NCBI RefSeq assembly: GCF_902506105.1 | Contig: NZ_LR733303.1 | Coordinates: 992,001 to 1,056,000 of the forward strand | Direction: 5' to 3' | DNA: 64,000 nt | Source of the DNA: Aeromicrobium sp. 9AM | Lineage (GTDB): Bacteria > Actinomycetota > Actinomycetes > Propionibacteriales > Nocardioidaceae | Shown: positions 798 through 14,335 of the stretch, in pieces | How the letters are laid out: every line of letters starts with the position of its first letter | Position numbering within the stretch: position 1 is the stretch's first letter | Program-made: the position numbers and the translations under genes | The notes under the pieces: model-generated | Databases searched by the model: none | Told to the model about the DNA's origin: nothing | The model's input: only the letters and a program-made list of their open reading frames with translations

Positions 798-1733
798 TCA
801 GCGCACGACGGCGTCGGTCACCTCGGCGTCGAGCTCCTGGCGGGTGATCGCGCCCTCCCAGTCGCCCTCGTGGCGGCACACCGCGGCGCCTGCCTTGACC
901 GCGGTGGCCAGGCACTCGGTCAGCGACCGGCCCTCGATCAGCTCGGCCAGGTAGCCGGCGACGAACGCATCGCCGGCGCCGACCGTGTCGACCACATCGA
1001 CACGTACGGCGCTGGCTCGGGCTCGTCCCGCGCCGGACCGGGCCAGGGCACCGCGCTCGCCGAGCTTGAGCACGACCGTCGACGGCCCCAGGTCGGCGAG
1101 CGCCTCGACGGTCTTCCACGGATCGTCGGGCAGGTCGCCCAGCAGGACGGCCGCCTCGTCGAGGCCGGCGAACAGTACGTCAGACCGTGCCGCGAGCTCA
1201 CGATAGATCGGCGCGGCCGCCTCGCTGCTCCACAGGCGTGACCGGTGGTTGACGTCGAACGAGATCGTGAGGCCGGCGTCGCCGGCGCGGCGTACGGCCT
1301 CGGTGACCGTGGCGGCGGCCGAGTCCGACAGCGCCGGGGTGATGCCGGTGATGTGCAGCAGGCCGAACTGCGACCAGTCCACGCCGTCGAGGTCGGCCGG
1401 CTCGAGCCTGCTGCCGGCGCTTGCGGTGCGGTGATAGGTCACGAGGGTGCGACCGAGCGCGTCGCGTTCCTTGAGCAGCAAGCCGGTGTGCCGGTCGTCG
1501 GTTGGCGCGATGGCATGCACCCCCTCGGCTCGCAGCTCGCGGACCACGCGGCGGCCCAGCCCGTCGGGGCCGACCCGGCCGAGCCAGGTGACCTCCGTGC
1601 CGAGGCGGGCAAGCCCGATGGCGACGTTGAGCTCGGCCCCGCCGACGCCGACGCCGAGGTGGGGGGCGGTCACGAGCGCCTCGGACGTACGGATGACGCC
1701 GAGGCCCTCGCCGAGGGTGAGGACGCGGGTCAT
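798..1733 (-). CDS. kdgK: 2-keto-3-deoxygluconate kinase, PfkB family
   Basis: Ribokinase/PfkB-fold sugar kinase of 311 residues. The N-terminal glycine-rich PfkB block is GGAELNVAIG (31-40), and the C-terminal signature has GAGD at 252-255 with D255 as the expected catalytic base. The stretch DVNHRSRLW (160-168) resembles the substrate-loop region of KDG kinases, so phosphorylation of 2-keto-3-deoxygluconate to KDPG is the likely reaction. It is last in a four-gene operon in which every junction overlaps by 4 bp (ATGA), directly after KDPG aldolase, which would use its product. The ATG was chosen over longer frames because it overlaps the aldolase stop. Confidence 0.87.
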   Translation of the reverse strand: MTRVLTLGEGLGVIRTSEALVTAPHLGVGVGGAELNVAIGLARLGTEVTWLGRVGPDGLGRRVVRELRAEGVHAIAPTDDRHTGLLLKERDALGRTLVTYHRTASAGSRLEPADLDGVDWSQFGLLHITGITPALSDSAAATVTEAVRRAGDAGLTISFDVNHRSRLWSSEAAAPIYRELAARSDVLFAGLDEAAVLLGDLPDDPWKTVEALADLGPSTVVLKLGERGALARSGAGRARASAVRVDVVDTVGAGDAFVAGYLAELIEGRSLTECLATAVKAGAAVCRHEGDWEGAITRQELDAEVTDAVVR

Positions 1734-2359
1734 GACGCCGCCAGCATCGAGGCCGTCGCGCGGGCGAGCCGCTCGATCTCGGCGAAGTCGCCATAGGCCA
1801 GCGCCGACCGCGGCGTCAGCCAGCTGCCGCTGATCGCGGCGACGGACGGGACGCCGAGGTAGTCCGCCGCATTCGCCAACGAGACCCCGCCGCTCGGCAC
1901 GAACCTGACGTCGGGGAACGGAGCGGCGAGCGCGTTCAAAAGCTTCGGCCCGCCCAGCGCGCCGACCGGGAACACCTTGAGCAGGGACAGGCCGAGCCGC
2001 AACGCGTGCTGCACCTCGGTCGCCGTCGCCACACCTGGGATCACCGCGACCTCGCGCGTACGGGCCTGCGCGACGACGTCGCTGTCGAGCCCCGGGCTGA
2101 TGATGAACCGGGCCCCGGCGTCGACGCACTCGTCGACCTGGCCGGGGCTGAGCACCGTTCCGGCGCCGACGAGGAAGCCGTCGACCTTGGCCGCCTCGCG
2201 GATCGCCTCGATGCCTGCCGGCGTACGCAGGGTGATCTCGGCGCAGCCAATGCCTCCGGCCAGCAGCGCTTCGGCCATCGGCCGCGCAGCAGCCGGATCA
2301 TCGATGACGACGACCGGGACCATCCGGAGCTGCGACAGCTGCTCGGCGACGCTGCTCAT
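1730..2359 (-). CDS. eda: KDPG aldolase (2-keto-3-deoxy-6-phosphogluconate aldolase)
   Basis: Class I aldolase of 209 residues, the usual length for Eda/KdgA. The conserved EITLRT block (E41, R45) and LLKVFP with Schiff-base Lys128 are present, as are GAGTV (66-70), ISPG (87-90) and the phosphate-loop PSGGV (155-159). It should cleave KDPG to pyruvate and glyceraldehyde-3-phosphate. It overlaps kdgK downstream and kduD upstream by 4 bp each, so the three are almost certainly co-translated. An alternative substrate is the galactonate phosphate analogue (KDPGal), but pairing with kdgK and kduD favours KDPG. Confidence 0.9.
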   Translation of the reverse strand: MSSVAEQLSQLRMVPVVVIDDPAAARPMAEALLAGGIGCAEITLRTPAGIEAIREAAKVDGFLVGAGTVLSPGQVDECVDAGARFIISPGLDSDVVAQARTREVAVIPGVATATEVQHALRLGLSLLKVFPVGALGGPKLLNALAAPFPDVRFVPSGGVSLANAADYLGVPSVAAISGSWLTPRSALAYGDFAEIERLARATASMLAAS

Positions 2360-3114
2360 CGCGCCAGCCAGCCACCGTCGACCGGCAGGACGATGCCGCT
2401 CACGTAGTCCGAGGCGGGCGAGGCGAGGAACACCGCTGCGCCGGCAAGGTCGTCGGGACGACCCCAACGGCCGGCGGGGATCCGCTCGAGGATGGAGCGT
2501 GAGCGGTCCGCGTCGTCCTGGAGCGCCTGCGTGTTGTCGGTCGCGATGTAGCCCGGTGCGATCGCGTTGACCGTCACACCCCGGCCGGCCCACTCGTTGG
2601 ACAGCGCGCGGACCAGGCCGAGCAGGCCGGACTTCGCGGCCGCGTAGCCGGGCACGTTGATGCCGCCCTGGAAGCTGAGCAGGCTCGCGGTGAAGATGAT
2701 CTTGCCGGTGCCGCGGTCGAGCATCCCGCGGCCGACGGCCTGGGACAGCGCGAACTGGCTCGACAGGTCGACCTCGAGCACCCGGTCCCACGACGCGAGC
2801 GAGTGCTCGGCAGCGGGTGCGCGTTCGATCGTGCCGGCGTTGTTGACCAGGATGTCGACCTCGCGCTCGGCGAGCTCGGCGCCCAGGGCCTCGACCGCGG
2901 CCCGGTCGGCGAAGTCGACGGCCTTGGCCTCGAACCGCCGGCCGTGCTTCTCGACGGCGGCTGCTGCGGCGCTGCCCTCGGACTCCATCGAGGCGCTGAT
3001 CCCGATGATGTCGGCGCCCGCAGCGGCGAGGGCCTCGGCGAAAGCCAGTCCGATGCCGCGGCGGGCACCGGTCACGACGGCGAGCCGGCCGGTGAGATCG
3101 AACGGTCCGGTCAT
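2356..3114 (-). CDS. kduD: 2-deoxy-D-gluconate 3-dehydrogenase / DKII reductase-type SDR
   Basis: Classical short-chain dehydrogenase of 252 residues: NAD(P)-binding TGARRGIG (15-22), NNAG (91-94), catalytic S144, Y157 and K161. The C-terminal part, with PGYIATDNTQ, RIPAGRWG and SDYVSG...VDGGWLAR, closely matches KduD proteins as I know them. KduD interconverts 2,5-diketo-3-deoxygluconate and KDG, so it would feed the downstream kinase and aldolase. It is third in the operon adh-kduD-eda-kdgK, overlapping both neighbours by 4 bp. SDR substrate assignment from sequence is never certain, but the C-terminal match is unusually good. Confidence 0.85.
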   Translation of the reverse strand: MTGPFDLTGRLAVVTGARRGIGLAFAEALAAAGADIIGISASMESEGSAAAAAVEKHGRRFEAKAVDFADRAAVEALGAELAEREVDILVNNAGTIERAPAAEHSLASWDRVLEVDLSSQFALSQAVGRGMLDRGTGKIIFTASLLSFQGGINVPGYAAAKSGLLGLVRALSNEWAGRGVTVNAIAPGYIATDNTQALQDDADRSRSILERIPAGRWGRPDDLAGAAVFLASPASDYVSGIVLPVDGGWLAR

Positions 3115-4175
3115 GACGCGGCCCCTTCCTGCACGGCGACGAGCATCTTCATCGCGGTCCCGGCCTCGAGGCGGGCGAACGCCTCGCCGGTGGCCTCCAG
3201 CGGTACGACGTCGGTGATCAGCTCGTCGGCCGGGATGACTCCGTCGACGATGAGCTGCACGGCGCGATCGAAGTCCTCGCGCTCGTACACCCGCGCTCCG
3301 AGGATGCGCAGCTCGCGCCAGAACACGCGCTGCAGGTCGACCGGGCGGGGCGTCGGGTGGATGGCGACCACGACGATCGTGCCGCGCACCTTGGCCAGCG
3401 CGGTCGCAGCCAGCACGGCCGCCGGAGCGCCGGAGACCTCGAAGACGACATCCGCGCCGGCGCCGCCGGTCCACTCGGTGACGCTGGCCTCCACGTCCTC
3501 GTCGCGCGCGTTGAGTGTACGGAAGCCGAGTTCCTCGACCTGCTGCAGCCGGGTCGGGTCGACCTCGGAGACGCACACGTCGGCGCCGGCATGACGCGCG
3601 ACGGTGGCGATCAGCACGCCGATCGGCCCGCCGCCGAGCACCACGACCTTGTCGCCCGACGCGAGCTCGGACCGGCGTACGTCGTGGGCTGCCACGGCGA
3701 CCGGCTCGACCAGGGCCGCGTGCCGCAGCGAGGCGTCGTCCGGCAGGCGTACGACGACGTGCTCGGGCACGGTCCAGAGCTCCTGCAGCGAGCCGGGGGA
3801 GTCGATGCCGATGAAGTTGAGGTGGTGGCACAGGTGCTGGTGACCGGCGAGGCACGCCGGGCAGGTGCCGTCCCAGTCGAGCGGCATCACGGTGACCCGG
3901 TCGCCGGGGGAGACGGCGGTGACGTTCGAGCCGACGGCGGCGACCGTGCCGCTCATCTCGTGGCCGAACACCAGGGGTCGCGTGACCCGGGCGTCCATGT
4001 TGCCGTGGACGATGTGCAGGTCGGTGCCGCACAAGCCGGTGTATGCCACCGCGATCTGCACCTCGCCCGGACCGGGCTGGAGGGGCTCGGCCGGCTCTGT
4101 CCGGACCGTCTTGTCACCGACATAATGGGCTGCGCGCAACGACCTGTTCCCTTCAGCTGGAGACCGCACCGACAT
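3111..4175 (-). CDS. Zinc-dependent sugar(-acid) alcohol dehydrogenase, MDR family
   Basis: Medium-chain dehydrogenase of up to 354 residues, first gene of the adh-kduD-eda-kdgK operon. Catalytic zinc ligands are C49 and H72-E73 (GHE); the Rossmann loop is GGGPIG (181-186). The structural-zinc lobe has C105, C108 and C116 but Asp102 where the first Cys normally stands. It resembles threonine/sorbitol-dehydrogenase-like enzymes. In this setting I infer oxidation of a 2-keto-3-deoxy-hexonate (for example at C5) to the diketo acid that KduD reduces. The ATG at 4175 directly abuts a GAGG; the third codon, GTG at 4169, has that GAGG at a normal 6-nt distance, and TTG at codon 13 follows AAGGG, so the true start may be a little downstream. 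Confidence 0.72.
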   Translation of the reverse strand: MSVRSPAEGNRSLRAAHYVGDKTVRTEPAEPLQPGPGEVQIAVAYTGLCGTDLHIVHGNMDARVTRPLVFGHEMSGTVAAVGSNVTAVSPGDRVTVMPLDWDGTCPACLAGHQHLCHHLNFIGIDSPGSLQELWTVPEHVVVRLPDDASLRHAALVEPVAVAAHDVRRSELASGDKVVVLGGGPIGVLIATVARHAGADVCVSEVDPTRLQQVEELGFRTLNARDEDVEASVTEWTGGAGADVVFEVSGAPAAVLAATALAKVRGTIVVVAIHPTPRPVDLQRVFWRELRILGARVYEREDFDRAVQLIVDGVIPADELITDVVPLEATGEAFARLEAGTAMKMLVAVQEGAAS

Positions 4176-4186
4176 CCTCGGTTGAA

Positions 4187-4206: not shown

Positions 4207-4257
4207 ACACTGAGGCGCATCGGCTGCTCCTGCACCGACTTTCGCAAGGGAACGAGG

Positions 4258-5262
4258 ATGAGCGCCGTGGGACGATCTGCTGTGGACGGTTCCATGGAGC
4301 GACGCGACTACCGGCGCGGTGGATCACTCACCGAGGTCGGCATGGGGTCTGCGCAGCTCGGCAACCTCTTCGTCGAGACGACCGACGAGGAGTCCACCGC
4401 TGCGGTCGACGCCGCGTGGCAGGCGGGCATCCGCTACTTCGACACGGCACCCCACTACGGTCTCGGCCTGTCGGAGCGACGCCTCGGACGCGCGCTGGCC
4501 GGCCGGCCGCGCGAGGAGTACGTGCTCTCCAGCAAGGTCGGGCGTCTGCTCGTCGACTCGCCGGAGACCGCGCACCAGCAGGACGATGACGGCTTCGTCG
4601 TCCCGGCGGAGACCAAGCGGGTCTTCGACTTCACCCGGGACGGCGTGTTGCAGTCGGTCGAGTCCAGCCTCGAGCGGCTGGGCGTCGACCGGCTCGACAT
4701 CGCCTATCTGCACGACCCTGACGATCACTGGGAGGCGGCGTCGACGACGGGCGTTGACGCCCTGGTCGAGCTGCGGGACCAAGGCGTGGTCGGGGCGATC
4801 GGCGCCGGCATGAACCAGTCCGCGATGCTCGCCGAGTTCGTCCGGCGCACCGACGTCGACATCATGATGGTCGCCGGCCGCTACTCGCTGCTCGACCAGT
4901 CGGCGGCTGACGACCTCCTGCCGATCGCAGCCGAGCGAGGCGTCAGCGTCGTGGCGGCCGCCGTCTACAACTCCGGCATCCTCAGCACGTCGACGGTCCC
5001 GGCCGATGCGCATTTCGACTACGGCGTCGCGTCGGCCGAGGTCCTGGCGAAGGCGCGGCGGATCCAGGAGGTGTGCGCGACCTTCGAGGTGGACCTGCCG
5101 GCCGCCGCGGTCCAGTTCGCCCTGCGGCGACCCGAGGTCGCCTCGGTCGTGCTGGGCATACGTACGGCCGGACACGCGATCTCGTCGGTCGAGCGGGCGA
5201 CTGCGCCGATCCCCGACGAGCTCTGGGGCGCACTGGCTGATGAAGGACTGGTCCGCGTATGA
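4258..5262 (+). CDS. Aldo/keto reductase, D-threo-aldose 1-dehydrogenase (L-fucose dehydrogenase) type
   Basis: AKR-fold protein of 334 residues. The tetrad is complete: D62 and Y67 in RYFDTAPHYG, K93 in LSSKVG, H152 in AYLHDPDD. The GLGLSERRLG block after the Tyr is characteristic of D-threo-aldose 1-dehydrogenases, which oxidise L-fucose, L-galactose and D-arabinose to lactones with NAD(P). It would be the first oxidative step of the cluster, supplying the lactonase encoded at 10992-11822. AAGGG lies 7 nt before the ATG. It diverges from the adh operon across a short shared promoter region and is followed by the gntR regulator. Confidence 0.8.
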   Translation: MSAVGRSAVDGSMERRDYRRGGSLTEVGMGSAQLGNLFVETTDEESTAAVDAAWQAGIRYFDTAPHYGLGLSERRLGRALAGRPREEYVLSSKVGRLLVDSPETAHQQDDDGFVVPAETKRVFDFTRDGVLQSVESSLERLGVDRLDIAYLHDPDDHWEAASTTGVDALVELRDQGVVGAIGAGMNQSAMLAEFVRRTDVDIMMVAGRYSLLDQSAADDLLPIAAERGVSVVAAAVYNSGILSTSTVPADAHFDYGVASAEVLAKARRIQEVCATFEVDLPAAAVQFALRRPEVASVVLGIRTAGHAISSVERATAPIPDELWGALADEGLVRV

Positions 5263-5318
5263 CCGCCGTCGCACCGCGATCTGCGCGTCGCCGCCCCCAT
5301 CTGCGCTGGTGGGCGCGA

Positions 5319-5336
5319 TGATAGGACGTATGAGGT
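5319..5336. promoter_or_regulatory. Candidate GntR operator upstream of gntR gene
   Basis: This site upstream of the first GntR gene contains ACGTATGAGGT, which matches ACGTATGATGT of the palindrome at 6191-6208 at 10 of 11 positions; over the 18-bp frame 12 bases agree. It would allow autoregulation. The TATGAG part could instead be a -10 hexamer. Confidence 0.4.
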
Positions 5337-5397
5337 CATGTGTGGTCACGTCTCGGACCACGCCAGGAAGCCCCACGGAGCATTGGAGTCCCCACGC

Positions 5398-6135
5398 ATG
5401 AGTGGTCGAGGTCAGATCAAGGATCTGCAGGCGCCCGAGAGCCGGGAACGACCTGCCGACATGTTGATGCGTGCCATCGTCGACTCGATCGTCGCGGGTC
5501 GCTACGAGGCCGAGCAGGCGCTCCCGCCCGAGGCGGCACTGGCCGAGCACTTCGGCGTCAGCCGCACGATCGTCCGCGAGTCGATGAAGCGTCTCGAGGA
5601 GAAGGGCCTCGTGGCGGTCCAGCAGGGCCGCGGCACCCTGGTGCAGCCGCACTCGAGCTGGAACGTGCTGGATCCCGTGGTGCTCAGCGCCGTCATCTCC
5701 CACGACGAGGAGCTGCACACCCTCGACGAGCTCACGCTGGTGCGCGGCTCCCTGGAGGGTGTCATGGCCGCGCAGGCGGCGGAGCGGGCCGGCGACGAGG
5801 GGCGCGCCGAGCTGTCCGCCGCGCTCGACCGGATGGTCGCGCTGACGGGGGACTACGACCAGTTCAGCGAGGCCGACGCCGTCTTCCACCGCACCGTGAT
5901 GGACCTGTCCGAGAACTTCCTGGCGAGCAACATCGCCTACACGCTCTACAGCCGCGCCCGCTCCTTCGCGCGGTTCGAGGGCGATCCGCCGTCGGACGCC
6001 ATCGACCGTACGGTCGACGAGCACCGCGCGGTCTACGAGGCGATCGCCGCAGGCAAGGTCGCCGAGGCACAGCAGGCCATGATCGACCACATCGTCGGCT
6101 CGTGGGAGCGGCGCAACCCGGCCCGCAAGTCCTAG
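5398..6135 (+). CDS. GntR-family transcriptional regulator, FCD (FadR) subfamily
   Basis: Regulator of 245 residues: winged HTH at about 20-85 (PPEAALAEHFGVSRTIVRES, wing QQGRGT) and an all-helical FCD ligand domain at about 105-235. Metal-binding residues typical of FCD are D160, H164, H209 and H231. Such proteins sense sugar acids or other carboxylates and are displaced from palindromic operators. The gene sits between the fucose-dehydrogenase gene and the ABC transporter, and similar candidate sites lie before adh/AKR, itself and the transporter, so it is the likely local repressor. The ATG was chosen because GGAG lies 9 nt upstream; an upstream in-frame codon at 5338 would overlap the candidate operator. 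Confidence 0.85.
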   Translation: MSGRGQIKDLQAPESRERPADMLMRAIVDSIVAGRYEAEQALPPEAALAEHFGVSRTIVRESMKRLEEKGLVAVQQGRGTLVQPHSSWNVLDPVVLSAVISHDEELHTLDELTLVRGSLEGVMAAQAAERAGDEGRAELSAALDRMVALTGDYDQFSEADAVFHRTVMDLSENFLASNIAYTLYSRARSFARFEGDPPSDAIDRTVDEHRAVYEAIAAGKVAEAQQAMIDHIVGSWERRNPARKS

Positions 6136-6190
6136 CCCTCCCGCGTGATCTGAAGAAAAGTGATCCGCTTCACACAAATCTCTTGCGCAA

Positions 6191-6208
6191 ACATCACACG
6201 TATGATGT
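6191..6208. promoter_or_regulatory. Near-perfect 18-bp palindrome (GntR operator) before the sugar ABC genes
   Basis: ACATCACACGTATGATGT is its own reverse complement except for one C/T pair, centred on ACGT. It lies 50 bp before the substrate-binding-protein start in an AT-richer gap, and TATGAT inside it could be the -10. Position and symmetry fit repression by the adjacent FCD GntR protein. Confidence 0.6.
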
Positions 6209-6257
6209 GCTATCTCTGCTGCCGACCAAGGCAGACCCTGTGACAGTGGAGGAATGA

Positions 6258-7625
6258 ATGAACCGCATCCAACCCCGCCGCCTTGTTCGGCAGATCGGCC
6301 TTCTCGGTGTCCTCAGCGTGACCGCCGTGGCCGTCCTCTCGGGATGCTCCAGCGGCAGCAGTGACAGCTCGGACGGAGGCCGCGGGTTCTCCGAGGCCAA
6401 GCAGGACAAGAACAGCACCATCACGGTGTGGGTCGACGCGACCCGCGTACCGGCGGTGAAGGCGTTCGAGAAGGCCAACCCGTCGATCAAGGTCAAGACC
6501 GTCACGTATGACGGCTCGGCCAACGGGTCCAACTCGTTCAAGACGAAGATGGCGCTCTACGACCGCGCCGGCAAGGGCTGGCCCGACGTCGTCTTCTCGT
6601 CGCAGAACAACGACGCTGCCTGGGCGACGCAGAAGGTGGCCGGCAAGCAGTCGTTCGCGGCCCGCCTCGACAAGGGCCTCGTCCCCGAAGGCACCCTGTC
6701 CGGGTTCTCCAAGGGCGCGCTCAACCCCTGCACAGTCGACGGCGGTGTCTACTGCCTGCGCAACGACCTCGCCCAGACCGTGCTCTGGTACGACAACTCG
6801 CTGCTGAAGAAGTTCGGCTACGCGGTCCCCAAGACGTGGGAGGAGTACCAGGCGCTCGGCGAGAAGGTCGCCAAGGAGCACCCCGGCTACATCGTCGGCT
6901 CGGTCGGCGACACGTGGACGCCTGAGGTGTTCATGTGGTCGAGCAAGTGCCAGGCCAACGACGTGACCGACATCCGCTCGGTGACCGTCAAGACCGACTC
7001 CACCGAGTGCAAGCGTGCCGCGTCGATGCTCGACACCCTCGTGGCCAACAAGTCGCTGACCAAGCTGAGCGTCTTCACGCCTGACTTCGTCAAGACCTAC
7101 ACCGGCAAGGTCCTCATGATGCCCGGCCCGGCTTGGTTCGCCGGCGCGATCTTCAACAACCCCGAGTCGCTCAACGTGCCCAAGGGCCGTCTGGGCGTCG
7201 CGGCTCCGCTGGCGTGGGACGGCGACTCGGCTGTCGCCGGCAACGTCGGTGGTGGCACGTGGTTCATCTCGAGCCACTCCAAGAACCTGGCCAACTCCGC
7301 CAAGTTCGCCGAGTTCGTCACGACGGACGACGCGTACCAGGTCAACCTCGCTCCCGGATACCCCGCGTTCTCGGCAGCCGCCGACAAGTGGGTCGCCAAG
7401 CAGGAGTCGTCCGGCTACTACGCCACGGACCTGTCCGGGCTGCTGAAGGCCGGCGGCCTCGTGTGGGACGGCTGGGGATTCCCCTCCTTCAGCCAGGAGG
7501 CGATCTGGGCCAAGACCATCACTCCGCTGGTGTCCTCGGGCAAGTCGATCGAGGAGAATCTTGGCACCTGGGGAACCGCCATCAAGAACCAGGCGAAGGT
7601 CAACGGTTACCAGGTCAATGACTGA
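6258..7625 (+). CDS. Sugar ABC transporter substrate-binding lipoprotein (family 1)
   Basis: Protein of 455 residues with a lipoprotein signal peptide: basic N-terminus, hydrophobic segment and lipobox LSGC with C30 as the acylated Cys. The rest reads as a cluster-B (UgpB/MalE-like) binding protein, with ITVWVDATRVPAVKAFEKANPSIKV-type opening at about 53-80. It would capture the extracellular sugar for the two permeases that follow. GGAGG lies 5 nt before the ATG. It is first in a run (binding protein, two permeases, dehydratase, mutarotase) in which every junction overlaps. A membrane-anchored receptor is normal for a Gram-positive cell. Confidence 0.88.
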   Translation: MNRIQPRRLVRQIGLLGVLSVTAVAVLSGCSSGSSDSSDGGRGFSEAKQDKNSTITVWVDATRVPAVKAFEKANPSIKVKTVTYDGSANGSNSFKTKMALYDRAGKGWPDVVFSSQNNDAAWATQKVAGKQSFAARLDKGLVPEGTLSGFSKGALNPCTVDGGVYCLRNDLAQTVLWYDNSLLKKFGYAVPKTWEEYQALGEKVAKEHPGYIVGSVGDTWTPEVFMWSSKCQANDVTDIRSVTVKTDSTECKRAASMLDTLVANKSLTKLSVFTPDFVKTYTGKVLMMPGPAWFAGAIFNNPESLNVPKGRLGVAAPLAWDGDSAVAGNVGGGTWFISSHSKNLANSAKFAEFVTTDDAYQVNLAPGYPAFSAAADKWVAKQESSGYYATDLSGLLKAGGLVWDGWGFPSFSQEAIWAKTITPLVSSGKSIEENLGTWGTAIKNQAKVNGYQVND

Positions 7626-8598: not shown

Positions 8599-9494
8599 GT
8601 ACGGCAACAGCGACCCGCCCGAACCGACTCACCGGCTGGAGCGGCCGGTCGATCATCGGGCTGATGCTGGTGGTCGCGACGATGTTCTTCATCGTCCCGC
8701 TGATCTGGCTGCTCATCGCGGCGACCAAGACCGAGCACGAGCTGGCCGTACGTTCGCCGTTCGCGATCGGGTCCTGGGACACGTTCACCTCCAACGTGCG
8801 ACAGCTCTTCGACTTCCAGTCCGGCGCCGTCGTCGGCTGGATGCGCAACTCCGCGTTCTACTCCATCGGCGCGCTCGTCATCACGCTCGCGATCTCGGTG
8901 CCGGCGGGGTATGCCCTGGCGCTGACCGAGTTCCGCTTCCGCCGGATCCTGATGGTCACGACGCTCGTCGTGATGCTGATGCCCAACACGGCGCTCGTGC
9001 TGCCGGTGTTCCTCGAGATGAACAAGGTGGGGCTCGTCGGGCAGCCGTTGTCGGTGATCCTGCCGTTCTCGTTCTACCCGTTCGGCGTCTACCTGACCTA
9101 CATCTACTTCTCGACGAGCATTCCCCGGAACCTGCTCGCCGCGGCCCGTCTCGACGGCTGCAACGAGGTGCAGGTGTTCACCCGGATCGCGCTCCCGCTC
9201 GCCGCGCCAGTGGTGGCCCTCGTGGCGTTCTTCAGCTTCGTGCAGAACTGGAACAACTACTTCCTGCCGTTCGTGATGCTGCCGTCGAGCGACAGCTATC
9301 CCATGCAGGTCGGGCTCTCGACGCTGCTCTCGTCGACGCCCGCGTTCAACCCGAGCGCCGTGGGATCGGAGTCGATGCACCTGCCAGCGCTCGCGATGGC
9401 GACCATCTTGTCGATGCTGCCGGTGCTGATCCTGTTCTTGTTCTCGCAGCGCTTCCTGGTGGCGGGCATGACGGCCGGGGGAGTCAAGGAATGA
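8595..9494 (+). CDS. Sugar ABC transporter permease (MalG/UgpE-like)
   Basis: Second permease, 299 residues, with six hydrophobic segments and an EAA loop (NLLAAARLDGCNEVQ...ALPLA) near residues 178-205. It pairs with the preceding permease to form the channel. The start overlaps the previous stop by 4 bp (ATGA), and its own stop overlaps the dehydratase start the same way, so translation is coupled. No nucleotide-binding subunit follows. Confidence 0.87.
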   Translation: MSTATATRPNRLTGWSGRSIIGLMLVVATMFFIVPLIWLLIAATKTEHELAVRSPFAIGSWDTFTSNVRQLFDFQSGAVVGWMRNSAFYSIGALVITLAISVPAGYALALTEFRFRRILMVTTLVVMLMPNTALVLPVFLEMNKVGLVGQPLSVILPFSFYPFGVYLTYIYFSTSIPRNLLAAARLDGCNEVQVFTRIALPLAAPVVALVAFFSFVQNWNNYFLPFVMLPSSDSYPMQVGLSTLLSSTPAFNPSAVGSESMHLPALAMATILSMLPVLILFLFSQRFLVAGMTAGGVKE

Positions 9495-10660
9495 AGATCA
9501 CCGGCTATCGCGAGCTCTTCACCCAGCACGAGTGGCACCGCCCCGTCGGCGACGTCAACGGCGTCAGCGTGGGGACCCGCACCGATGTGCACGTCCTGAT
9601 CCTCACGACCGATGAGGGCTATGAGGGCATCAGCATCGGCCCGTCGAGCCGAGGAGACCTCGCACGTGTCTTCCCGGCGATCGAGGGCGAGGACCCGCGC
9701 AGCGTCACGGCGCTCTACGACCGCATGCTGGCGTACGTCTTCAAGACCGGGCACACCGGCAGCGTCTTCGCGTCGATCGGTGCGATCGACGACGCGCTCT
9801 GGGACCTCAAGGCCAAGATGGCCGGCGAGCCCCTGTGGCGGATGCTCGGCGGCCGTACGCGGTTCGTGCCCGGCTATGCCTCGGGCCTCGAGTTCGGGCT
9901 GGCGGACGAGGAGGTGCACGCGCTCTACCAGCGGTTCGCCGACGCCGGTTTCGCCCAGGCCAAGCTCAAGGGCGGCCGCAACGTCGATGACGACGTACGC
10001 CGGCTGCGCCTCGTGCGCGACGTGCTGACCGCCAACTCCGCACAGCCCGCCATGATGTTCGACGCCAACGAGTCGTGGCACCGCTCCCAGGCGGTTCGGC
10101 ACATCCAGCGCATCGAGGCGGAGGTCGACCTGACCTGGATCGAGGAGCCCGTACGCCGCTGGGACGCCCACGGGCTGGCGGAGGTGCGCCGCAGCGTCAA
10201 GACCGGGGTGGCAACCGGCGAGAACCTGACCGGACTCGAGCAGTATCGCCCGCTGTTCGACGCCGATGCCGTCGACGTGGTGCAGTTCAACAGCGGCTGG
10301 GGCACCACGAACGCCTTGCGCGTCGCCGTGGTGGCCCACGCGCACGACCTGCCGGTCAGCCCGATCGGCTTCACGCCGATCATCGCGCACGCTGCGAGCA
10401 CGATGCCCAACCACCTGACGACCGAGGTGCAGGACCTCGGCCAGCCCATCGGGGTGCACATCGACCAGGAGATCGCCGACGGCGGCATCGTCCTGGGCAA
10501 CGCCCCGGGCGCCGGCATCACGATCGACGAGGCGCTGATCGAGCAGCTGCCGGTCGGTCAGGGCTGGGCCACGCCTGCGGGGCCCCACGTGCGACCCGAA
10601 CGCGCCGGTCTGCGGATGGTGCCGGGGGATCCCGGCGACACCACCTGGCTCGGCGCATGA
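9491..10660 (+). CDS. Enolase-superfamily sugar-acid dehydratase (mandelate racemase subgroup)
   Basis: Protein of 389 residues. N-terminal capping domain 1-125, then a TIM barrel with K158-x-K160 (KLK), metal ligands D191 (MMFDANE), E219 (IEEP) and E244 (TGEN), and a His at the seventh-strand end (H300 in PIIAH). This is the MR-subgroup pattern of acid-sugar dehydratases. Cluster context (fucose-type dehydrogenase, mutarotase, lactonase, KDF-type SDR and FAH hydrolase) makes L-fuconate, and probably L-galactonate, the substrate, giving the 2-keto-3-deoxy acid. Characterised fuconate dehydratases, as I recall them, are longer (about 440 residues), so this may be a different clade. Start and stop overlap both neighbours by 4 bp. 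Confidence 0.78.
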   Translation: MKITGYRELFTQHEWHRPVGDVNGVSVGTRTDVHVLILTTDEGYEGISIGPSSRGDLARVFPAIEGEDPRSVTALYDRMLAYVFKTGHTGSVFASIGAIDDALWDLKAKMAGEPLWRMLGGRTRFVPGYASGLEFGLADEEVHALYQRFADAGFAQAKLKGGRNVDDDVRRLRLVRDVLTANSAQPAMMFDANESWHRSQAVRHIQRIEAEVDLTWIEEPVRRWDAHGLAEVRRSVKTGVATGENLTGLEQYRPLFDADAVDVVQFNSGWGTTNALRVAVVAHAHDLPVSPIGFTPIIAHAASTMPNHLTTEVQDLGQPIGVHIDQEIADGGIVLGNAPGAGITIDEALIEQLPVGQGWATPAGPHVRPERAGLRMVPGDPGDTTWLGA

Positions 10661-10995
10661 GCGAGCCGCTGCGGGTCTGCCAGACGACCCAGCTTCGTCC
10701 GGAGATGCGGGAGCGCTATCTCGAGCTGCACTCGGCGGTCTGGCCGACGGTGGAAGCCGGGATCCGGTCCGCGCACATCGAGAACTACTCGATCTTCGTG
10801 CGCGGCGACACGCTCGTCGCCTACTTCGAGTACACGGGGGACGACCTGGCCGCCGACCTCGCGGTGCTCGACGACGATCCCGACATGCAGCGGTGGTTGG
10901 CGCTCACCGATCCGTGCCAGCTGGACCCTGAACCGGGTCAGCCGGGCGGGCCGTGGCGCGAGCTCACGCTGGCCTGGCGCCTGTCACGCGGCTAG
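10657..10995 (+). CDS. L-rhamnose/L-fucose mutarotase (RhaM family, DUF718)
   Basis: Small protein of 112 residues resembling RhaM-type mutarotases: the N-terminal RPEMRERYLELHSAVWPTV block (12-30) with the conserved H22, the central IENYSIF and the WRELTLAWRL end. It would equilibrate anomers of the sugar before oxidation at C1. It is the last gene of the transporter-dehydratase run, with a 4-bp start overlap. Its TAG stop lies inside CTAG and is shared with the stop of the convergent lactonase gene. Confidence 0.82.
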   Translation: MSEPLRVCQTTQLRPEMRERYLELHSAVWPTVEAGIRSAHIENYSIFVRGDTLVAYFEYTGDDLAADLAVLDDDPDMQRWLALTDPCQLDPEPGQPGGPWRELTLAWRLSRG

Positions 10996-11822
10996 CCGAG
11001 CTCGATCCCGTACGTCGTTGCGGCGTTGGTCACCAGCACGAGGTCCTGCTCGGCGTCCGACAGGCCGTACGAGGTGGCGACGTGGTCGAACCACGCTTCG
11101 TACGGCTCGGCGTCGCGTCGGGAGACCGGCCAGTCGCTGCCGACCAGGCAGCGCCCGGGTCCGAACGTCTCGAGCGCCGCGCTGACGAACGGGCGCGCAC
11201 GGTCGGTGGACGCCTGGCCCGACAGCTTGATGAGGGTGTTGGGCTCTGCCGCGAGGGCTCGGAGACCGTCCAGCCACTGTGTCGCCGACGGGCTGCCCCA
11301 CTCGTCGTCGATCGCGGGCTTGCCGAGGTGGTCGAGCACGATCGTGGTCTGCGGGGCCTGCCGGCTCAGCCGCGTCAGGGCGGGCAGCTGGTGGGCCCGG
11401 ACGCACGCGTCGAACGTCAGACCGGCGTCGCCGACGGCCGCCAGGCCCGCGGCGACCCCTGGGTCGTCGAAGAGCTCGACCGGCTCGTCCTGCAGCAACC
11501 GGCGAATGCCGGTGACCTTGTCAATCTCACGCAGCACGTCGAGGTCGGCGGCCACGGCGTCGCCGCGATCGATGGGTGCGAAGGCCACGACGGCAGCGAT
11601 GGCGGGGCCGCCTTCGTCCAGCTGCGAGGCCCACGCCGCCTCGGCCGGAGCCTCGGCAGCGGTCCGATCCGCTTCCACGAAGACCGCTCCGAGGGAGCTC
11701 GGACTCACCTCGGCGACGTCGGCGGGGGTGAACCGCTCGGGGAACGGCGCCCCGTCCAGCCACGCGTACGAGAACAGTCGCCGGTCCCAGCAGTGCAGAT
11801 GCGTGTCGATGTACATGGCCAC
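10992..11822 (-). CDS. Amidohydrolase-2 family lactonase (L-fucono-1,5-lactonase type)
   Basis: TIM-barrel metal-dependent hydrolase (COG3618 type), 276 residues from GTG or 274 from the internal ATG at 11816. It opens with YIDTHLHCWD (HxH metal motif), has VLDHLGKP in the middle and VGSDWPVS with the catalytic Asp near the C-terminus. The family opens sugar lactones such as fuconolactone; here it would hydrolyse the lactone made by the aldo/keto reductase. It is divergent from the FAH gene across a gap holding two inverted operator-like sites, and convergent with the mutarotase gene, overlapping it by the 4 bases CTAG. Confidence 0.8.
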   Translation of the reverse strand: MAMYIDTHLHCWDRRLFSYAWLDGAPFPERFTPADVAEVSPSSLGAVFVEADRTAAEAPAEAAWASQLDEGGPAIAAVVAFAPIDRGDAVAADLDVLREIDKVTGIRRLLQDEPVELFDDPGVAAGLAAVGDAGLTFDACVRAHQLPALTRLSRQAPQTTIVLDHLGKPAIDDEWGSPSATQWLDGLRALAAEPNTLIKLSGQASTDRARPFVSAALETFGPGRCLVGSDWPVSRRDAEPYEAWFDHVATSYGLSDAEQDLVLVTNAATTYGIELG

Positions 11823-11833
11823 AGCCCGAGCCT

Positions 11834-11851
11834 AGACATTCGATGTTTGAT
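11834..11851. promoter_or_regulatory. Operator-like site A in the lactonase/FAH divergent gap
   Basis: AGACATTCGATGTTTGAT lies 12 bp upstream of the lactonase start. Its reverse complement recurs, with 16 of 18 bases identical, at 11896-11913. The pair is arranged symmetrically around the divergent promoters. The likely binder is the second FCD GntR protein encoded at 13550. Confidence 0.55.
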
Positions 11852-11895
11852 CCGTCAAGATATCTACTGACCGCTCAATGACGAGCGCATCGCGT

Positions 11896-11913
11896 ATTAA
11901 AGATCGAATGTCT
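11896..11913. promoter_or_regulatory. Operator-like site B in the lactonase/FAH divergent gap
   Basis: Inverted copy of site A (ATTAAAGATCGAATGTCT), 44 bp away and 13 bp before the FAH-hydrolase start. One protein binding both sites could control both transcripts. No other copy was noticed in the window. Confidence 0.55.
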
Positions 11914-11926
11914 GTGAAGGAATCTG

Positions 11927-12787
11927 ATGAAGTTTGCTCGGCTCGGCCCGTTGGGTCACGAGATCCCCGTCGTCCAGGCCGAGGACCGCGTCTTCGACCT
12001 GTCCTCGGTCACGGCCGACATCGACGCGTCGTTCTGGGAGTCCGGCGGCGTCGCGAAGGTCAGCGCCGCACTGGCTGACGGCACGTTGCCCGTCCTGGCC
12101 GATGCCGAGACACTGCGGGTGGGTGCGCCAATCGCCAAGCCCGGCACGATCGTCTGCATCGGCATGAACTACGCAGCGCACGCTGCGGAGTCCGGCTCCG
12201 AACCGCCGAGCGTGCCCGTGCTGTTCTTCAAGGCCGCCAACACGATCGCAGGCCCCAACGACACCGTCACGATCCCGCGCGGCAGCGAGAAGACCGACTG
12301 GGAGGTCGAGCTCGGCATCGTGATCGGCCGCCGGGCGTCCTACCTCGACTCGGTCGAGCAGAGCCTCGACCACGTCGCTGGATTCGTGCTGGCCAACGAC
12401 CTGTCGGAGCGGGCGTTCCAGCTCGAGGAGTCCGGCGGGCAGTGGAGCAAGGGCAAGATCGCACCCGGGTTCAGCCCGCTCGGCCCGTGGGTCGTCACGC
12501 CCGACGAGGTCGACCACGAGAACCTCCGGCTCCGCAGCTGGGTCAACGGCGAGCCGCGACAGGACTCGTCGACGGCGGACCTGATCTTCGACGTGGCGCA
12601 CATCATCCATCATCTGAGCCAGTACATGGTGCTCGATCCGGGCGACGTGGTCCTGACCGGTACGCCCGAGGGTGTCGCGCTGTCGGGGCGGTTCCCCTAC
12701 CTGCAGCCCGGTGACGTCGTCGAGCTCGAGATCGGCGGTCTCGGCCGGCAGCGTCAGGACGTCGTCGCGTACGAGGCGGCACGATGA
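11927..12787 (+). CDS. Fumarylacetoacetate-hydrolase-family protein (2,4-diketo-3-deoxy-L-fuconate hydrolase type)
   Basis: FAH-fold hydrolase of 286 residues: IGMNYAAHAAESG, the substrate loop KAANTIAGPNDTV, and the metal ligands in DWEVELGIVIGR are all present, with the long C-terminal LTGTPEGVA block. In the non-phosphorylating L-fucose route this family cleaves 2,4-diketo-3-deoxy-L-fuconate to pyruvate and L-lactate. The gene is translationally coupled (ATGA) to the SDR that would make that diketo acid. AAGGA lies 6 nt before the ATG. Other FAH substrates are possible in principle, but the neighbours argue strongly. Confidence 0.82.
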   Translation: MKFARLGPLGHEIPVVQAEDRVFDLSSVTADIDASFWESGGVAKVSAALADGTLPVLADAETLRVGAPIAKPGTIVCIGMNYAAHAAESGSEPPSVPVLFFKAANTIAGPNDTVTIPRGSEKTDWEVELGIVIGRRASYLDSVEQSLDHVAGFVLANDLSERAFQLEESGGQWSKGKIAPGFSPLGPWVVTPDEVDHENLRLRSWVNGEPRQDSSTADLIFDVAHIIHHLSQYMVLDPGDVVLTGTPEGVALSGRFPYLQPGDVVELEIGGLGRQRQDVVAYEAAR

Positions 12788-13548
12788 GCGCGCCCGAGCT
12801 CGACGGCCTCGTCGCGATCGTCACCGGTGGTGCCAGCGGGATCGGCGCCGCCGTCGCCATGGAGCTCCGCGACCGGGGAGCATCGGTCGCGGTCCTCGAC
12901 CTCGACCCGAGCACCGCACCTGAGGGAACGCTCGCTGTGCAGGCGGACGTCGCCTCCGACGACAGCGTCCGCGCGGCCATCGCGAGCGTGGTGAGCAGCT
13001 TGGACCGCATCGACATCGTCGTCAACAACGCCGGCATCGGCGCCAAGGGCACGGTCGAGGACAACTCCGACGCCGAGTGGCAGCGGGTGTTCGACGTCAA
13101 CGTGTTCGGCGTCGTCCGCACGACCCGCGCTGCGCTCCCGTACCTCCGGCTCTCGCCGAGCCCCGCGATCGTCAACGTCTCCTCGATCGCCGCGACCGCC
13201 GGGCTGCCCGAGCGCGCGCTCTACTCAGCCACCAAGGGTGCCGTGCATGCGCTCACTCTGGCCATGGCTGCCGACCACGTACGCGAGGGCATCCGGATCA
13301 ACAGCGTCAACCCGGGGACGGTCGAGACGCACTTCGTCACCTTGCTGCTCGAGAAGGCCGAAGACCCGGTCGCCGAGCGCGCCGCGGTGACGGCGCGCCA
13401 GCCGCACGGCCGACTGGTCAGCCCGGAGGAGGTCGCGCACGCCGTGGCGTACCTCGCCAGCCCGCTTGCCGGCTCGACCACCGGGACATCACTCGCCGTC
13501 GACGGTGGCATGGCAGGTCTGCGCACCCGTCCCGCCGCTAGGGAGTGA
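12784..13548 (+). CDS. SDR-family oxidoreductase (2-keto-3-deoxy-L-fuconate dehydrogenase type)
   Basis: Classical SDR of 254 residues: TGGASGIG near residues 15-22, NNAG (80-83 region), Ser-Tyr-Lys triad in NVSSIA and YSATK. It would oxidise the 2-keto-3-deoxy acid at C4 to give the diketo substrate of the coupled FAH hydrolase upstream. Its end lies 1 bp before the second GntR gene, so the three form one operon. SDR substrate is assigned by context only. Confidence 0.8.
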   Translation: MSAPELDGLVAIVTGGASGIGAAVAMELRDRGASVAVLDLDPSTAPEGTLAVQADVASDDSVRAAIASVVSSLDRIDIVVNNAGIGAKGTVEDNSDAEWQRVFDVNVFGVVRTTRAALPYLRLSPSPAIVNVSSIAATAGLPERALYSATKGAVHALTLAMAADHVREGIRINSVNPGTVETHFVTLLLEKAEDPVAERAAVTARQPHGRLVSPEEVAHAVAYLASPLAGSTTGTSLAVDGGMAGLRTRPAARE

Positions 13549-13549
13549 G

Positions 13550-14236
13550 ATGGCACTGACCGACGAGGCGATCTCGAAGATCAAGACCATGATCCTCGAC
13601 GGCCGGCTCAAGCCCGGCGACCGGTTGCCGCGCGAGGCCGATCTGGCCGAGCAGCTCGGCATCTCCCGCGGCTCCCTGCGTGAGGCGGTCAGGGCGCTGT
13701 CGATGATCCGGATCCTCGACGTACGCCGTGGCGACGGCACGTATGTGACGAGCCTCGAGCCCGAGCTGTTGCTGGAGACGCTGACGTTCGTCATCGACTT
13801 CCACCAGGACTCCGACGTCCTCGACCTGTTCGAGGTCCGTCGTGCACTCGAGCCGATGGCTGCGGAGAAGGCCGCGCGGCTGATGCCCGCTGACGAGGCC
13901 GCCGAGCTGCTCACGCTGGTGGACTCGGTGCGGGCCGACGACCCGGTCGAGGCCTGGGTCGCCAACGACATCGAGTTCCACCACCGGATCGCGCTCGCCG
14001 CCGACAACTCCGTGCTGTGCCTGCTGGCCGACAGCGTGGCCGCCCGCACGCATCAGGCACGGGTGTGGCGGGGTGTGACGCAGGAGGACTCGTTCGAGCA
14101 GACGCGTCGCGAGCACCGTGCGATCGCGCTGGCGATCTCCGAGCGGCAGCCGAGCGTCGCGGCAGCGTGCGCGCTGACTCATGTCGCGGGGATCGAGGGC
14201 TGGCTGCGGCGCAGCCTCGGTGGCGCCGAGTCCTGA
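13550..14236 (+). CDS. GntR-family transcriptional regulator, FCD subfamily (second in cluster)
   Basis: Protein of 228 residues. The winged HTH occupies about 1-67 (PREADLAEQLGISRGSLREA, wing VRRGDGTY); the FCD domain shows D140, H144, H189 and H211 as expected metal ligands. GGGAG lies just upstream of the ATG, and the gene is the third of the FAH-SDR-gntR operon. The inverted sites in the divergent promoter of the same operon are its likely targets, giving autoregulated control of lactonase and cleavage steps. It differs from the first FCD regulator, implying two inducers or two branches. A hairpin terminator follows 11 bp after the stop. Confidence 0.85.
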   Translation: MALTDEAISKIKTMILDGRLKPGDRLPREADLAEQLGISRGSLREAVRALSMIRILDVRRGDGTYVTSLEPELLLETLTFVIDFHQDSDVLDLFEVRRALEPMAAEKAARLMPADEAAELLTLVDSVRADDPVEAWVANDIEFHHRIALAADNSVLCLLADSVAARTHQARVWRGVTQEDSFEQTRREHRAIALAISERQPSVAAACALTHVAGIEGWLRRSLGGAES

Positions 14237-14267: not shown

Positions 14268-14299
14268 GCTTGCCATGCCCTCATCTGAACCCTTAATGT

Positions 14300-14314: not shown

Positions 14315-14335
14315 CCAATAAGGAAAGCGATCCTC

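What the first reader, a model, noticed from the sequence alone, without database searches (positions are those of the whole stretch)
798..14236. Forked L-fucose / L-galactose-type pathway in one two-regulator cluster
The window shows all six enzyme types of the non-phosphorylating L-fucose route (fucose-type AKR, mutarotase, lactonase, enolase-superfamily dehydratase, SDR, FAH hydrolase) with a sugar ABC importer, and beside them an operon of Zn-dehydrogenase, KduD, KDG kinase and KDPG aldolase that the fucose route does not need. Fucose-type dehydrogenases also take L-galactose. L-galactonate dehydration gives 2-keto-3-deoxy-L-galactonate, which needs oxidation to a diketo acid and re-reduction by a KduD-type enzyme to become KDG; exactly those two dehydrogenases plus kinase and aldolase are present. 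Inference: 6-deoxy sugars leave via pyruvate plus lactate, 6-hydroxy sugars via KDPG.
Basis: partly seen in the sequence, partly recalled or inferred. Interest (0 to 1): 0.8.

Follow-up and report, generated by a model that had tools for sequence, protein, structure and literature searches.

The report
Two-exit L-galactose/L-fucose gene cluster
A bacterium carries one gene cluster that seems to break down L-galactose-like and L-fucose-like sugars through a shared front end and two exits that look separately switched, reusing an enzyme pair known from seaweed-sugar degradation.

Summary
The genes are there as described (798-14236), except that the lactonase lies on the minus strand. The chemistry proposed for the left operon is well supported. 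Orthologs of its Zn-dehydrogenase are directly followed by a KduD gene in 35 of 39 loci. They sit beside L-fuconate dehydratase (14), a 3,6-anhydro-L-galactonate cycloisomerase type (9, plus 1 weak) or the window's own enolase type (5). The product the first two can share is 2-keto-3-deoxy-L-galactonate (L-KDGal). So the pair is most likely L-KDGal 5-dehydrogenase plus 2,5-diketo reductase, leading to KDG and KDPG. UxaA- and UxaB-type families of the tagaturonate/altronate alternative gave no hit in this genome.

Corrections: (1) the enolase protein is no L-fuconate dehydratase but an uncharacterised subfamily lacking the usual Asp-His pair; a true one sits in a second cluster. (2) The importer's palindromic operator has one other near-exact match genome-wide, before an unlinked secreted GH141-like gene; FAH-SDR and lactonase carry a different, unique operator. 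(3) The KDPG branch looks like the core, FAH-SDR an add-on. The fork is plausible, not proven: a known L-KDF dehydrogenase also oxidises L-KDGal.

The parts
798..1733 (-). KDG kinase (PfkB family), end of left operon
   Evidence: PF00294 172 bits; KDG/KDGal kinase models NF041332 187 and NF040938 155 bits, both below cut-off
1730..2359 (-). KDPG/KHG aldolase Eda
   Evidence: TIGR01182 230 bits, cut-off 156
2356..3114 (-). KduD-type SDR: predicted 2,5-diketo-3-deoxy-L-galactonate 5-reductase
   Evidence: TIGR01832 313 bits, cut-off 339; the homologous neighbour gene on the Catenovulum plasmid is annotated 2,5-didehydro-3-deoxy-L-galactonate 5-reductase
3111..4175 (-). Zn-dependent dehydrogenase: predicted L-KDGal 5-dehydrogenase
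   Evidence: orthologs beside AHGA cycloisomerase types and beside L-fuconate dehydratase, KduD next to it in 35 of 39; five cycloisomerase-bearing plasmid loci
4193..4211 (.). weak GntR1-type site between the two divergent operons
   Evidence: ATACATCANACCTTANACT conserved in 3 genomes; low motif score
4294..5262 (+). aldo/keto reductase, predicted L-galactose/L-fucose/D-arabinose 1-dehydrogenase
   Evidence: PF00248; best solved relatives are L-galactose dehydrogenases, 9w6y 118 bits
5319..5336 (.). moderate GntR1-type site before gntR1
   Evidence: third-best motif score in the 64 kb window, conserved in 3 genomes
5398..6135 (+). GntR/FCD regulator 1
   Evidence: PF00392 and PF07729
6191..6208 (.). 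strong palindromic operator ACATCACACGTATGATGT before the importer
   Evidence: one of only two sites with at most 1 mismatch to ATCATACGTATGAT in the genome; the other is before the GH141-like gene
6258..7625 (+). sugar-binding protein of ABC importer
   Evidence: PF01547
7618..8598 (+). ABC permease 1
   Evidence: PF00528
8595..9494 (+). ABC permease 2
   Evidence: PF00528
9491..10660 (+). enolase-superfamily protein (MLE-W subfamily), predicted aldonate dehydratase
   Evidence: PF13378 148 bits; KxK and three metal ligands kept, Asp-His dyad absent in 20 of 20 aligned members; nearest solved 2pp0, 113 bits
10657..10995 (+). RhaM-family mutarotase
   Evidence: PF05336 81.5 bits
10992..11822 (-). 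amidohydrolase lactonase, opposite strand
   Evidence: PF04909 130 bits; NF052480 L-fucono-1,5-lactonase 115 of 400 bits
11834..11848 (+). GntR2-type operator, copy 1
   Evidence: exact match to AGACATTCGATNTTT; only two sites genome-wide at up to 1 mismatch; conserved in 3 genomes
11899..11913 (-). GntR2-type operator, copy 2 (inverted)
   Evidence: as copy 1
11927..12787 (+). FAH-type 2,4-diketo-3-deoxy acid hydrolase
   Evidence: PF01557 236 bits; 8gsr 214 bits, 1gtt 212 bits; NF053535 282 of 500 bits
12784..13548 (+). SDR, predicted L-KDF 4-dehydrogenase (type-2-like pattern R144-T179-F184-R205)
   Evidence: best solved relative 4dqx; pattern read against PMC11199699
13550..14236 (+). GntR/FCD regulator 2
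   Evidence: PF00392 and PF07729

Best explanation
The cluster imports and degrades an aldose of the L-galacto series (L-galactose, and its 6-deoxy form L-fucose). The AKR oxidises it, the lactonase opens the lactone, and the enolase-superfamily protein dehydrates the acid. The 6-hydroxy product L-KDGal is oxidised at C5 by the Zn-dehydrogenase, reduced by the KduD-type enzyme to D-KDG, phosphorylated, and cleaved by Eda to pyruvate and glyceraldehyde 3-phosphate. The 6-deoxy product L-KDF cannot be phosphorylated at C6; it is oxidised at C4 by the SDR and cleaved by the FAH enzyme to pyruvate and L-lactate. GntR1 controls release (an unlinked secreted GH141-like enzyme), import, dehydratase and mutarotase, probably AKR, and perhaps the left operon. 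GntR2 controls lactonase and SDR-FAH. Shown by sequence: genes, orthology classes, operators, co-occurrence. Inferred: every reaction, every substrate, every regulator-operator pairing.
For: Zn-dehydrogenase orthologs (39 of 80 loci kept, >=44% identity): KduD adjacent in 35, against 2 of 41 controls. Partners: L-fuconate dehydratase (14; own copy 645 bits to 2hne), cycloisomerase type (9, of which 5 are L066 itself or 75-78% identical to it and 4 are 45-47%; L066 copy 556 bits to 5xd7) or MLE-W (5). All 5 plasmid loci opened, of 14 hits, hold the pair with a cycloisomerase homolog (58-72% to L066) and an aldehyde dehydrogenase; one KduD neighbour is annotated as the 2,5-didehydro-3-deoxy-L-galactonate reductase. 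UxaA-type and UxaB-type families: 0 hits in the genome. GH141-like gene beside 6 of 10 clusters of this type, in 14 of 25 MLE-W regions at >=44% identity and 4 more at 24-26%; operator shared only with the importer at <=1 mismatch, 0.034 sites expected. SDR and FAH match L-KDF-type enzymes. Of 394 class genomes, 26 have MLE-W, 23 the Zn-dehydrogenase, 14 both.
Against: The enolase protein lacks the Asp-His dyad of fuconate dehydratase and the cycloisomerase, so its reaction is unproven. L-KDF dehydrogenase of H. huttiense also takes L-KDGal (PMC11199699), so a strict fork is not forced. The GntR1-type site before the left operon is weak. Apart from Eda (TIGR01182), the NCBIfam models quoted here for the cluster enzymes are matched below their cut-offs. 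16 of 25 MLE-W regions show no Zn-dehydrogenase/KduD pair within the fetched stretch, and 12 of 26 MLE-W genomes have no Zn-dehydrogenase match at E<=1e-75, so MLE-W also works with other exits. A KduD gene also touches a distant Zn-dehydrogenase in 2 of 41 controls. GH141 also contains a xylanase (PMC10154630).
Confidence: 0.6

Rival explanations
1. Same downstream chemistry, different entry sugar: a stereoisomer that differs only at C2 or C3 (L-talose, L-gulose, L-idose or their 6-deoxy forms) and converges on L-KDGal or L-KDF after dehydration. The genome's true L-fuconate dehydratase cluster (C6:438000-456000) would then serve L-galactose/L-fucose.
For: MLE-W is far from fuconate dehydratase (versus 52) and lacks its dyad; the genome holds a second, fuconate-dehydratase cluster with its own Zn-dehydrogenase, KduD and Eda.
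Against: AKR nearest to L-galactose dehydrogenases, lactonase's only NCBIfam model L-fucono-lactonase, GH141-like gene with the importer's operator, a relative of BT_1002 of RG-II use.
Confidence: 0.2
2. One exit only: SDR and FAH take both L-KDF and L-KDGal (giving lactate or glycerate), and the left operon serves a uronate, KduD's classical role.
For: H. huttiense L-KDF dehydrogenase accepts L-KDGal (PMC11199699); KduD model score just under cut-off.
Against: The Zn-dehydrogenase-KduD pair travels with fuconate dehydratase, cycloisomerase types and MLE-W across phyla, and 13 of 14 fuconate-dehydratase clusters have the pair but no FAH within range.
Confidence: 0.1
3. Oxidation first: the Zn-dehydrogenase is an L-galactonate 5-dehydrogenase (LgoD-like), the KduD-type enzyme reduces D-tagaturonate, and MLE-W dehydrates D-altronate to KDG, as in E. 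coli, Halomonas and Luteolibacter with other enzymes.
For: D-altronate and L-galactonate share C2-C4 configuration (PMC6336799, passages); LgoD/Uxa genes lie inside L-fucose loci of Halomonas (PMC5507952, passages).
Against: Orthologs of the pair accompany AHGA cycloisomerase, which makes L-KDGal directly with no L-galactonate step; UxaA-type and UxaB-type families gave no hit in the genome. Non-orthologous substitutes such as UxaF were not searched.
Confidence: 0.06
4. The left operon is a relic or copy of a 3,6-anhydro-L-galactose (agar) pathway with no link to the rest.
For: The pair is homologous to the agar-pathway pair.
Against: No aldehyde dehydrogenase and no cycloisomerase among the cluster genes; same head-to-head arrangement kept in two congeners, left-operon proteins 74-97% identical; MLE-W-type clusters with the pair in several families.
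Confidence: 0.04

Closest known systems
3,6-anhydro-L-galactose (agar) catabolism, lower part
   Same: L-KDGal 5-dehydrogenase, 2,5-diketo reductase, KDG kinase, then KDPG (PMC5943477, passages, citing Lee et al. 2014, not read); homologous gene pair
   Different: L-KDGal would come from an aldonate dehydratase fed by an AKR and a lactonase, not from an aldehyde dehydrogenase and a cycloisomerase
Non-phosphorylating L-fucose pathway, route 2 (H. huttiense; PMC11199699, passages and section 10)
   Same: mutarotase, 1-dehydrogenase, lactonase, dehydratase, L-KDF 4-dehydrogenase and FAH hydrolase types all present
   Different: dehydratase is another enolase subfamily; a second, KDPG-type exit is attached; a GH141-like gene shares the importer's operator
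L-fucose/L-galactonate loci of Halomonas (PMC5507952, passages)
   Different: there via LgoD, UxaB (or UxaF) and UxaA; UxaA- and UxaB-type families gave no hit here
Dual L-glucose/L-galactose pathway of Luteolibacter LG18 (PMC12632266, parts 1, 2, 4 and passages)
   Same: L-galactose to KDG and KDPG via C5 oxidation and reduction
   Different: oxidation precedes dehydration (tagaturonate, altronate)
BT_1002, GH141 L-fucosidase of RG-II use (5mqp; PMC10154630, passages)
   Same: beta-helix family homology
   Different: remote; here operator-linked to an L-sugar importer with a KDPG-type exit

Membership tests
L-KDGal 5-dehydrogenase / 2,5-diketo reductase pair (agar pathway) | Zn-dehydrogenase and KduD-type gene adjacent, homologous to pairs beside AHGA cycloisomerase | tested here: met
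   43-51% and 56-67% identity to the pair in 5 of 5 opened plasmid loci (of 14 hits) with cycloisomerase; KduD adjacent in 35 of 39 orthologs, 2 of 41 controls
L-KDGal 5-dehydrogenase / 2,5-diketo reductase pair (agar pathway) | activity on L-KDGal and the 2,5-diketo acid | not testable with these tools
   no assay
Enolase-type L-fuconate dehydratase | orthology to 2hne/1yey and the Asp-His dyad besides KxK | tested here: not met
   no 2hne/1yey hit at E<=1e-30; dyad absent in 20 of 20 MLE-W, present in 4 of 4 FucD
L-KDF 4-dehydrogenase (SDR) | arginine-ligand pattern, types 1 to 4 | tested here: inconclusive
   R144-T179-F184-R205 = R-T-F-R, close to type 2 (R-T-Y-R); best solved relative 4dqx, which the paper places near type 2
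2,4-diketo-3-deoxy-L-fuconate/rhamnonate hydrolase (FAH) | closest solved relative is such a hydrolase; curated model cut-off | tested here: inconclusive
   8gsr 214 bits, but 1gtt (HpaG type) 212 bits; NF053535 282 of 500 bits
L-fucono-1,5-lactonase (amidohydrolase) | curated model cut-off | tested here: not met
   only NCBIfam hit at E<=1e-5, 115 of 400 bits; amidohydrolase family PF04909 met
Tagaturonate/altronate L-galactonate route | UxaA-type dehydratase and UxaB-type reductase | tested here: not met
   PF04295 and PF08125: 0 hits in genome; 5 and 7 of 14 control genomes ring
GH141 (unlinked gene C7:784442) | homology to BT_1002 | tested here: met
   own copy vs 5mqp E 1.7e-36
GH141 (unlinked gene C7:784442) | catalytic Asp523 and Asp564 of BT_1002 | tested here: inconclusive
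   two Asp align, but in a weak colinear segment (9.5 bits) and only if the chain numbering is shifted by +5, which I assumed

The most novel reading that the evidence does not exclude
A widespread, undescribed actinobacterial L-galactose route: a secreted GH141-family enzyme releases L-galactose (or L-fucose), MLE-W, an enolase subfamily without the His-Asp dyad, dehydrates the acid by a mechanism resting on the KxK lysines, and the agar-pathway pair carries L-KDGal to KDPG. Many actinobacterial 'L-fuconate dehydratase' clusters are then L-galactose clusters, with SDR-FAH as an add-on exit for L-fucose under its own regulator.
Probability: 0.4. Interest if true: 0.7.

Novelty: new variant of a known kind. 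Interest (0 to 1): 0.55.

Why it matters
L-galactose occurs in pectin RG-II, plant gums and red-algal galactans (recalled), yet the characterised bacterial L-galactose and L-galactonate routes met in this literature search run through tagaturonate and altronate. If right, this gives a second route, reassigns a class of fuconate-dehydratase clusters, shows an agar-pathway enzyme pair recruited into another sugar pathway, and points to an enolase subfamily that would have to work without its usual second catalytic base.

Tried and rejected
Considered and set aside. Tagaturonate/altronate order: held unlikely on homology to cycloisomerase loci and on no hit for Uxa families. Filing the enolase protein as L-fuconate dehydratase: rejected. 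Reading the FAH co-occurrence as strong evidence: toned down, because FAH relatives at E<=1e-55 occur in 154 of 394 class genomes. Structure of MLE-W: AlphaFold model poor (mean pLDDT 60.8, six sequences); its Foldseek hits confirm only the superfamily, with AHGA cycloisomerases on top. Motif scan: the left-operon site is weak, so its GntR1 membership is only suggested. At up to 2 mismatches the importer's palindrome has 5 sites, the reversed control pattern 1. Rfam and tRNA scans of the window: nothing. Literature: a search for at least 4 of 6 terms (L-fucose, actinobacteria, GntR, L-2-keto-3-deoxyfuconate, KDPG aldolase, KduD) found 0 papers. Other listings were; I saw no title or abstract start there that describes this combination, but some lists were cut (30 of 46, 20 of 23, 12 of 45 and 10 of 26 papers shown) and only open-licence PMC texts were searched.

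Counts: Fisher tests ignore shared ancestry and are descriptive only. The one for KduD adjacency assumed 0 of 41 controls; a recheck found KduD touching the distant Zn-dehydrogenase in 2 of 41 (L081, 59% identity; L091, 44%; upstream in both), and one search replaces it. L119 (S. brasiliensis) is a decayed copy (Zn-dehydrogenase cut short, KduD missing, FAH/SDR fragments) and is left out where 'intact' is said. Of the 26 MLE-W genomes, G550 (40% identity) was fetched (L182) but left out of the 25 regions; G000 and G076 were already in hand. The 25 regions come from 23 genomes; several are shorter than 20 kb, so absence of a gene there is weak evidence. L162 shares 14 kb of identical DNA with named locus L044, so the two samples overlap by one. 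L167 ends before the FAH gene of G403, which lies 2.9 kb from its Zn-dehydrogenase; in G593 (L165) Zn-dehydrogenase and FAH lie 0.8 kb apart but outside the fetched stretch. Nine of the 39 ortholog loci are shorter than 20 kb.

Full report
WHAT IS THERE. The window is G000:C6:992001-1056000 of a 4.19 Mb genome and has 64-73% GC in 2-kb steps. The left operon kinase-Eda-KduD-Zn-dehydrogenase (798-4175, minus) has 4-bp gene overlaps. Head to head with it lie AKR and gntR1, followed by importer, enolase-superfamily protein and RhaM-type mutarotase (4294-10995, plus). The lactonase (10992-11822) is on the minus strand, divergent from FAH-SDR-gntR2 (11927-14236).

WHAT THE LEFT OPERON DOES. In the orthologs the KduD-type gene (>=50% identity, same strand, within 300 bp) is adjacent in 35 of 39; among the controls a KduD match of any strength is adjacent in 2 of 41. 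Enolase-type partners of the orthologs fall in three classes: L-fuconate dehydratase in 14, cycloisomerase type in 10 (one, L050, at only 25% identity and 101 bits), and the window's own subfamily, here called MLE-W, in 5; 10 have none in range. The class labels rest on solved relatives: the fuconate dehydratase of this genome's second cluster matches 2hne with 645 bits, and the Pseudorhodobacter cycloisomerase L066 matches AHGA cycloisomerase 5xd7 with 556 bits. Four other copies (L067, L071, L074, L090) are 75-78% identical to L066; the four of L053, L055, L056 and L073 only 45-47%, so their label is less sure. AHGA cycloisomerase makes 2-keto-3-deoxygalactonate (PMC9706016, passages), in the L-form (PMC11219438, passages). 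Fuconate dehydratase acts on L-fuconate and, from recall of Yew et al. 2006, on L-galactonate. The product the two can share is L-KDGal. A protein search of plasmids found 14 records; I opened 5 (B. uniformis, Catenovulum, two Paracoccus, Microscilla). All 5 carry a cycloisomerase homolog next to the pair or within a few kb, an aldehyde dehydrogenase in the same stretch, and Zn-dehydrogenase followed by KduD; one KduD is annotated 2,5-didehydro-3-deoxy-L-galactonate 5-reductase. The series L-KDGal -> 2,5-diketo acid -> KDG -> KDPG is described for agar degraders (PMC5943477, passages). L-KDGal and D-KDG differ only at C5 (established stereochemistry), so the oxidise-and-re-reduce step makes sense.

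ORDER OF STEPS. The main bacterial alternative oxidises L-galactonate first (Halomonas loci, PMC5507952, passages; Luteolibacter, PMC12632266, parts 1, 2 and 4 and passages). Two observations speak against it here: in the cycloisomerase loci no L-galactonate need be formed, yet the same pair is present; and the UxaA-type (PF04295) and UxaB-type (PF08125) families give 0 hits in this genome while 5 and 7 of 14 control genomes ring. Substitutes such as UxaF were not searched.

THE ENOLASE PROTEIN IS THE WEAK LINK. Its best solved relative is L-talarate/galactarate dehydratase at 113 bits; no fuconate dehydratase appears at E<=1e-30. In an alignment of 20 MLE-W, 4 fuconate dehydratases and 5 cycloisomerase types, the KxK motif and the three metal ligands are kept in MLE-W, but the Asp and His of the second catalytic pair are lacking in all 20. 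Dehydration by MLE-W is therefore an inference from its place in the cluster. The predicted model is poor.

RELEASE OF THE SUGAR AND REGULATION. Beside 6 of 10 MLE-W/Zn-dehydrogenase clusters (window, L034, L035, L038, L039, L043-L045, L047, L119) lies a secreted-type beta-helix protein (L034, L035, L043, L044, L045, L047; 51-93% identical pairwise among the first five); L119 has two diverged ones, L038 and L039 none in range. Its solved relatives, at the cut-offs used, are BT_1002 (GH141) and 9rx2. BT_1002 is the GH141 L-fucosidase of RG-II use, and the family also holds a xylanase (PMC10154630, passages). In an MLE-W-anchored sample (26 of 394 class genomes; 25 regions from 23 genomes examined) the GH141-like gene is present at >=44% identity in 14, at 24-26% in 4, and not found in 7; the Zn-dehydrogenase/KduD pair is present in 9. 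In the window's genome the GH141-like gene is on another contig (C7:784442, 91% to the congener's). Footprinting in two congeners gave a palindrome ATCATACGTATGAT. At no more than one mismatch it occurs twice in the genome, before the importer and before the GH141-like gene, against 0.034 expected; at two mismatches there are three more sites, the reversed control having one. Weaker conserved copies lie before gntR1 and between AKR and the left operon. The lactonase/FAH gap holds a different inverted pair, the only two matches of that pattern in the genome at up to one mismatch. Which regulator binds which site is inferred from position. So release, import and dehydration share one operator type, and the L-KDF-type exit has its own.

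IS THERE A FORK? Both exits are in the same neighbourhood in 8 of 10 family loci and in 4 of 35 named loci that have the Zn-dehydrogenase/KduD pair (L043, L045, L063, L080). By coordinates, FAH also lies 0.8-2.9 kb from the Zn-dehydrogenase in G593, G403, G236 and G076, but 64 kb away in G383. In 13 of 14 fuconate-dehydratase clusters no FAH is in range. FAH relatives exist somewhere in 25 of 26 MLE-W genomes and 21 of 23 Zn-dehydrogenase genomes, against 154 of 394 overall, but that FAH group is broad. The SDR has a type-2-like L-KDF dehydrogenase pattern. Against a strict fork: H. huttiense L-KDF dehydrogenase has kcat/Km 7900 on L-KDF and 1480 on L-KDGal (PMC11199699). I read the KDPG branch as the core and SDR-FAH as an add-on that lets 6-deoxy sugars (and perhaps D-arabinose) leave.

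SECOND CLUSTER. The genome has another copy at C6:438000-456000 (L033): lactonase-like protein, GntR2-like regulator, true L-fuconate dehydratase, Zn-dehydrogenase (56%), KduD (68%), Eda and a kinase-like ORF, with a ribose-type binding protein. No FAH or SDR match was found in that stretch. It may be the plain L-galactose cluster of the organism, and it would mask single mutants.

NOVELTY. The individual steps after the dehydratase have precedents. The combination (an aldonate-dehydratase entry into L-KDGal, the agar-pathway pair, an L-fucose-type exit under a second operator, and a GH141-like gene sharing the importer's operator) was not seen in the listings of the searches made. The authors of PMC6336799 mention an unpublished L-galactonate dehydratase of an unidentified L-galactose route in Acidovorax (passage), so the idea is in the air. 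Hence: new variant of a known kind.

Noticed in passing
L033 (G000:C6:438000-456000): Second, paralogous cluster in the same genome with a true L-fuconate dehydratase, Zn-dehydrogenase, KduD and Eda but no FAH/SDR match in the stretch.
   Followed up: yes
L126 10443-12500 (G000:C7:784442) and L127 8943-10814 (G000:C7:2508930-2510795): Two secreted-type GH141-like beta-helix genes; the first carries the importer's operator, the second is a distant relative (about 29-34%).
   Followed up: partly
L167 12636-18669, L165 5986-7218, L037 8429-9625, L038 1393-2574: CoA-transferase family III type ORFs near several of these sugar clusters (Pfam-confirmed in L167, by sequence look in the others), in L167 with enoyl-CoA hydratase and aldehyde dehydrogenase: an unexplained alternative exit.
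   Followed up: no
L119 (Streptomyces brasiliensis): Decayed copy of the cluster: Zn-dehydrogenase cut short, KduD gone, FAH and SDR fragments left, MLE-W and AKR still present.
   Followed up: partly
L173 5778-7328: Arabinofuranosidase ArfA (NF051901, over cut-off) next to MLE-W and the GH141-like gene, pointing to plant cell-wall or arabinogalactan substrates.
   Followed up: no
L081 9261-10996 and L091 9211-10993: KduD-type gene touching a distantly related Zn-dehydrogenase (34-37% to the window's), upstream instead of downstream: perhaps another oxidise-and-reduce pair.
   Followed up: no
window 14285-14345: A Fur/Zur-like AT-rich inverted sequence (GAATGAAAATCATTC) just before an exported lipoprotein-like ORF at 14336-15547; the likeness is by eye and recall.
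   Followed up: no
window 21-794: NO VEIN C-terminal domain (PF13020) protein, plus strand, its stop 3 bp from the end of the left operon.
   Followed up: no
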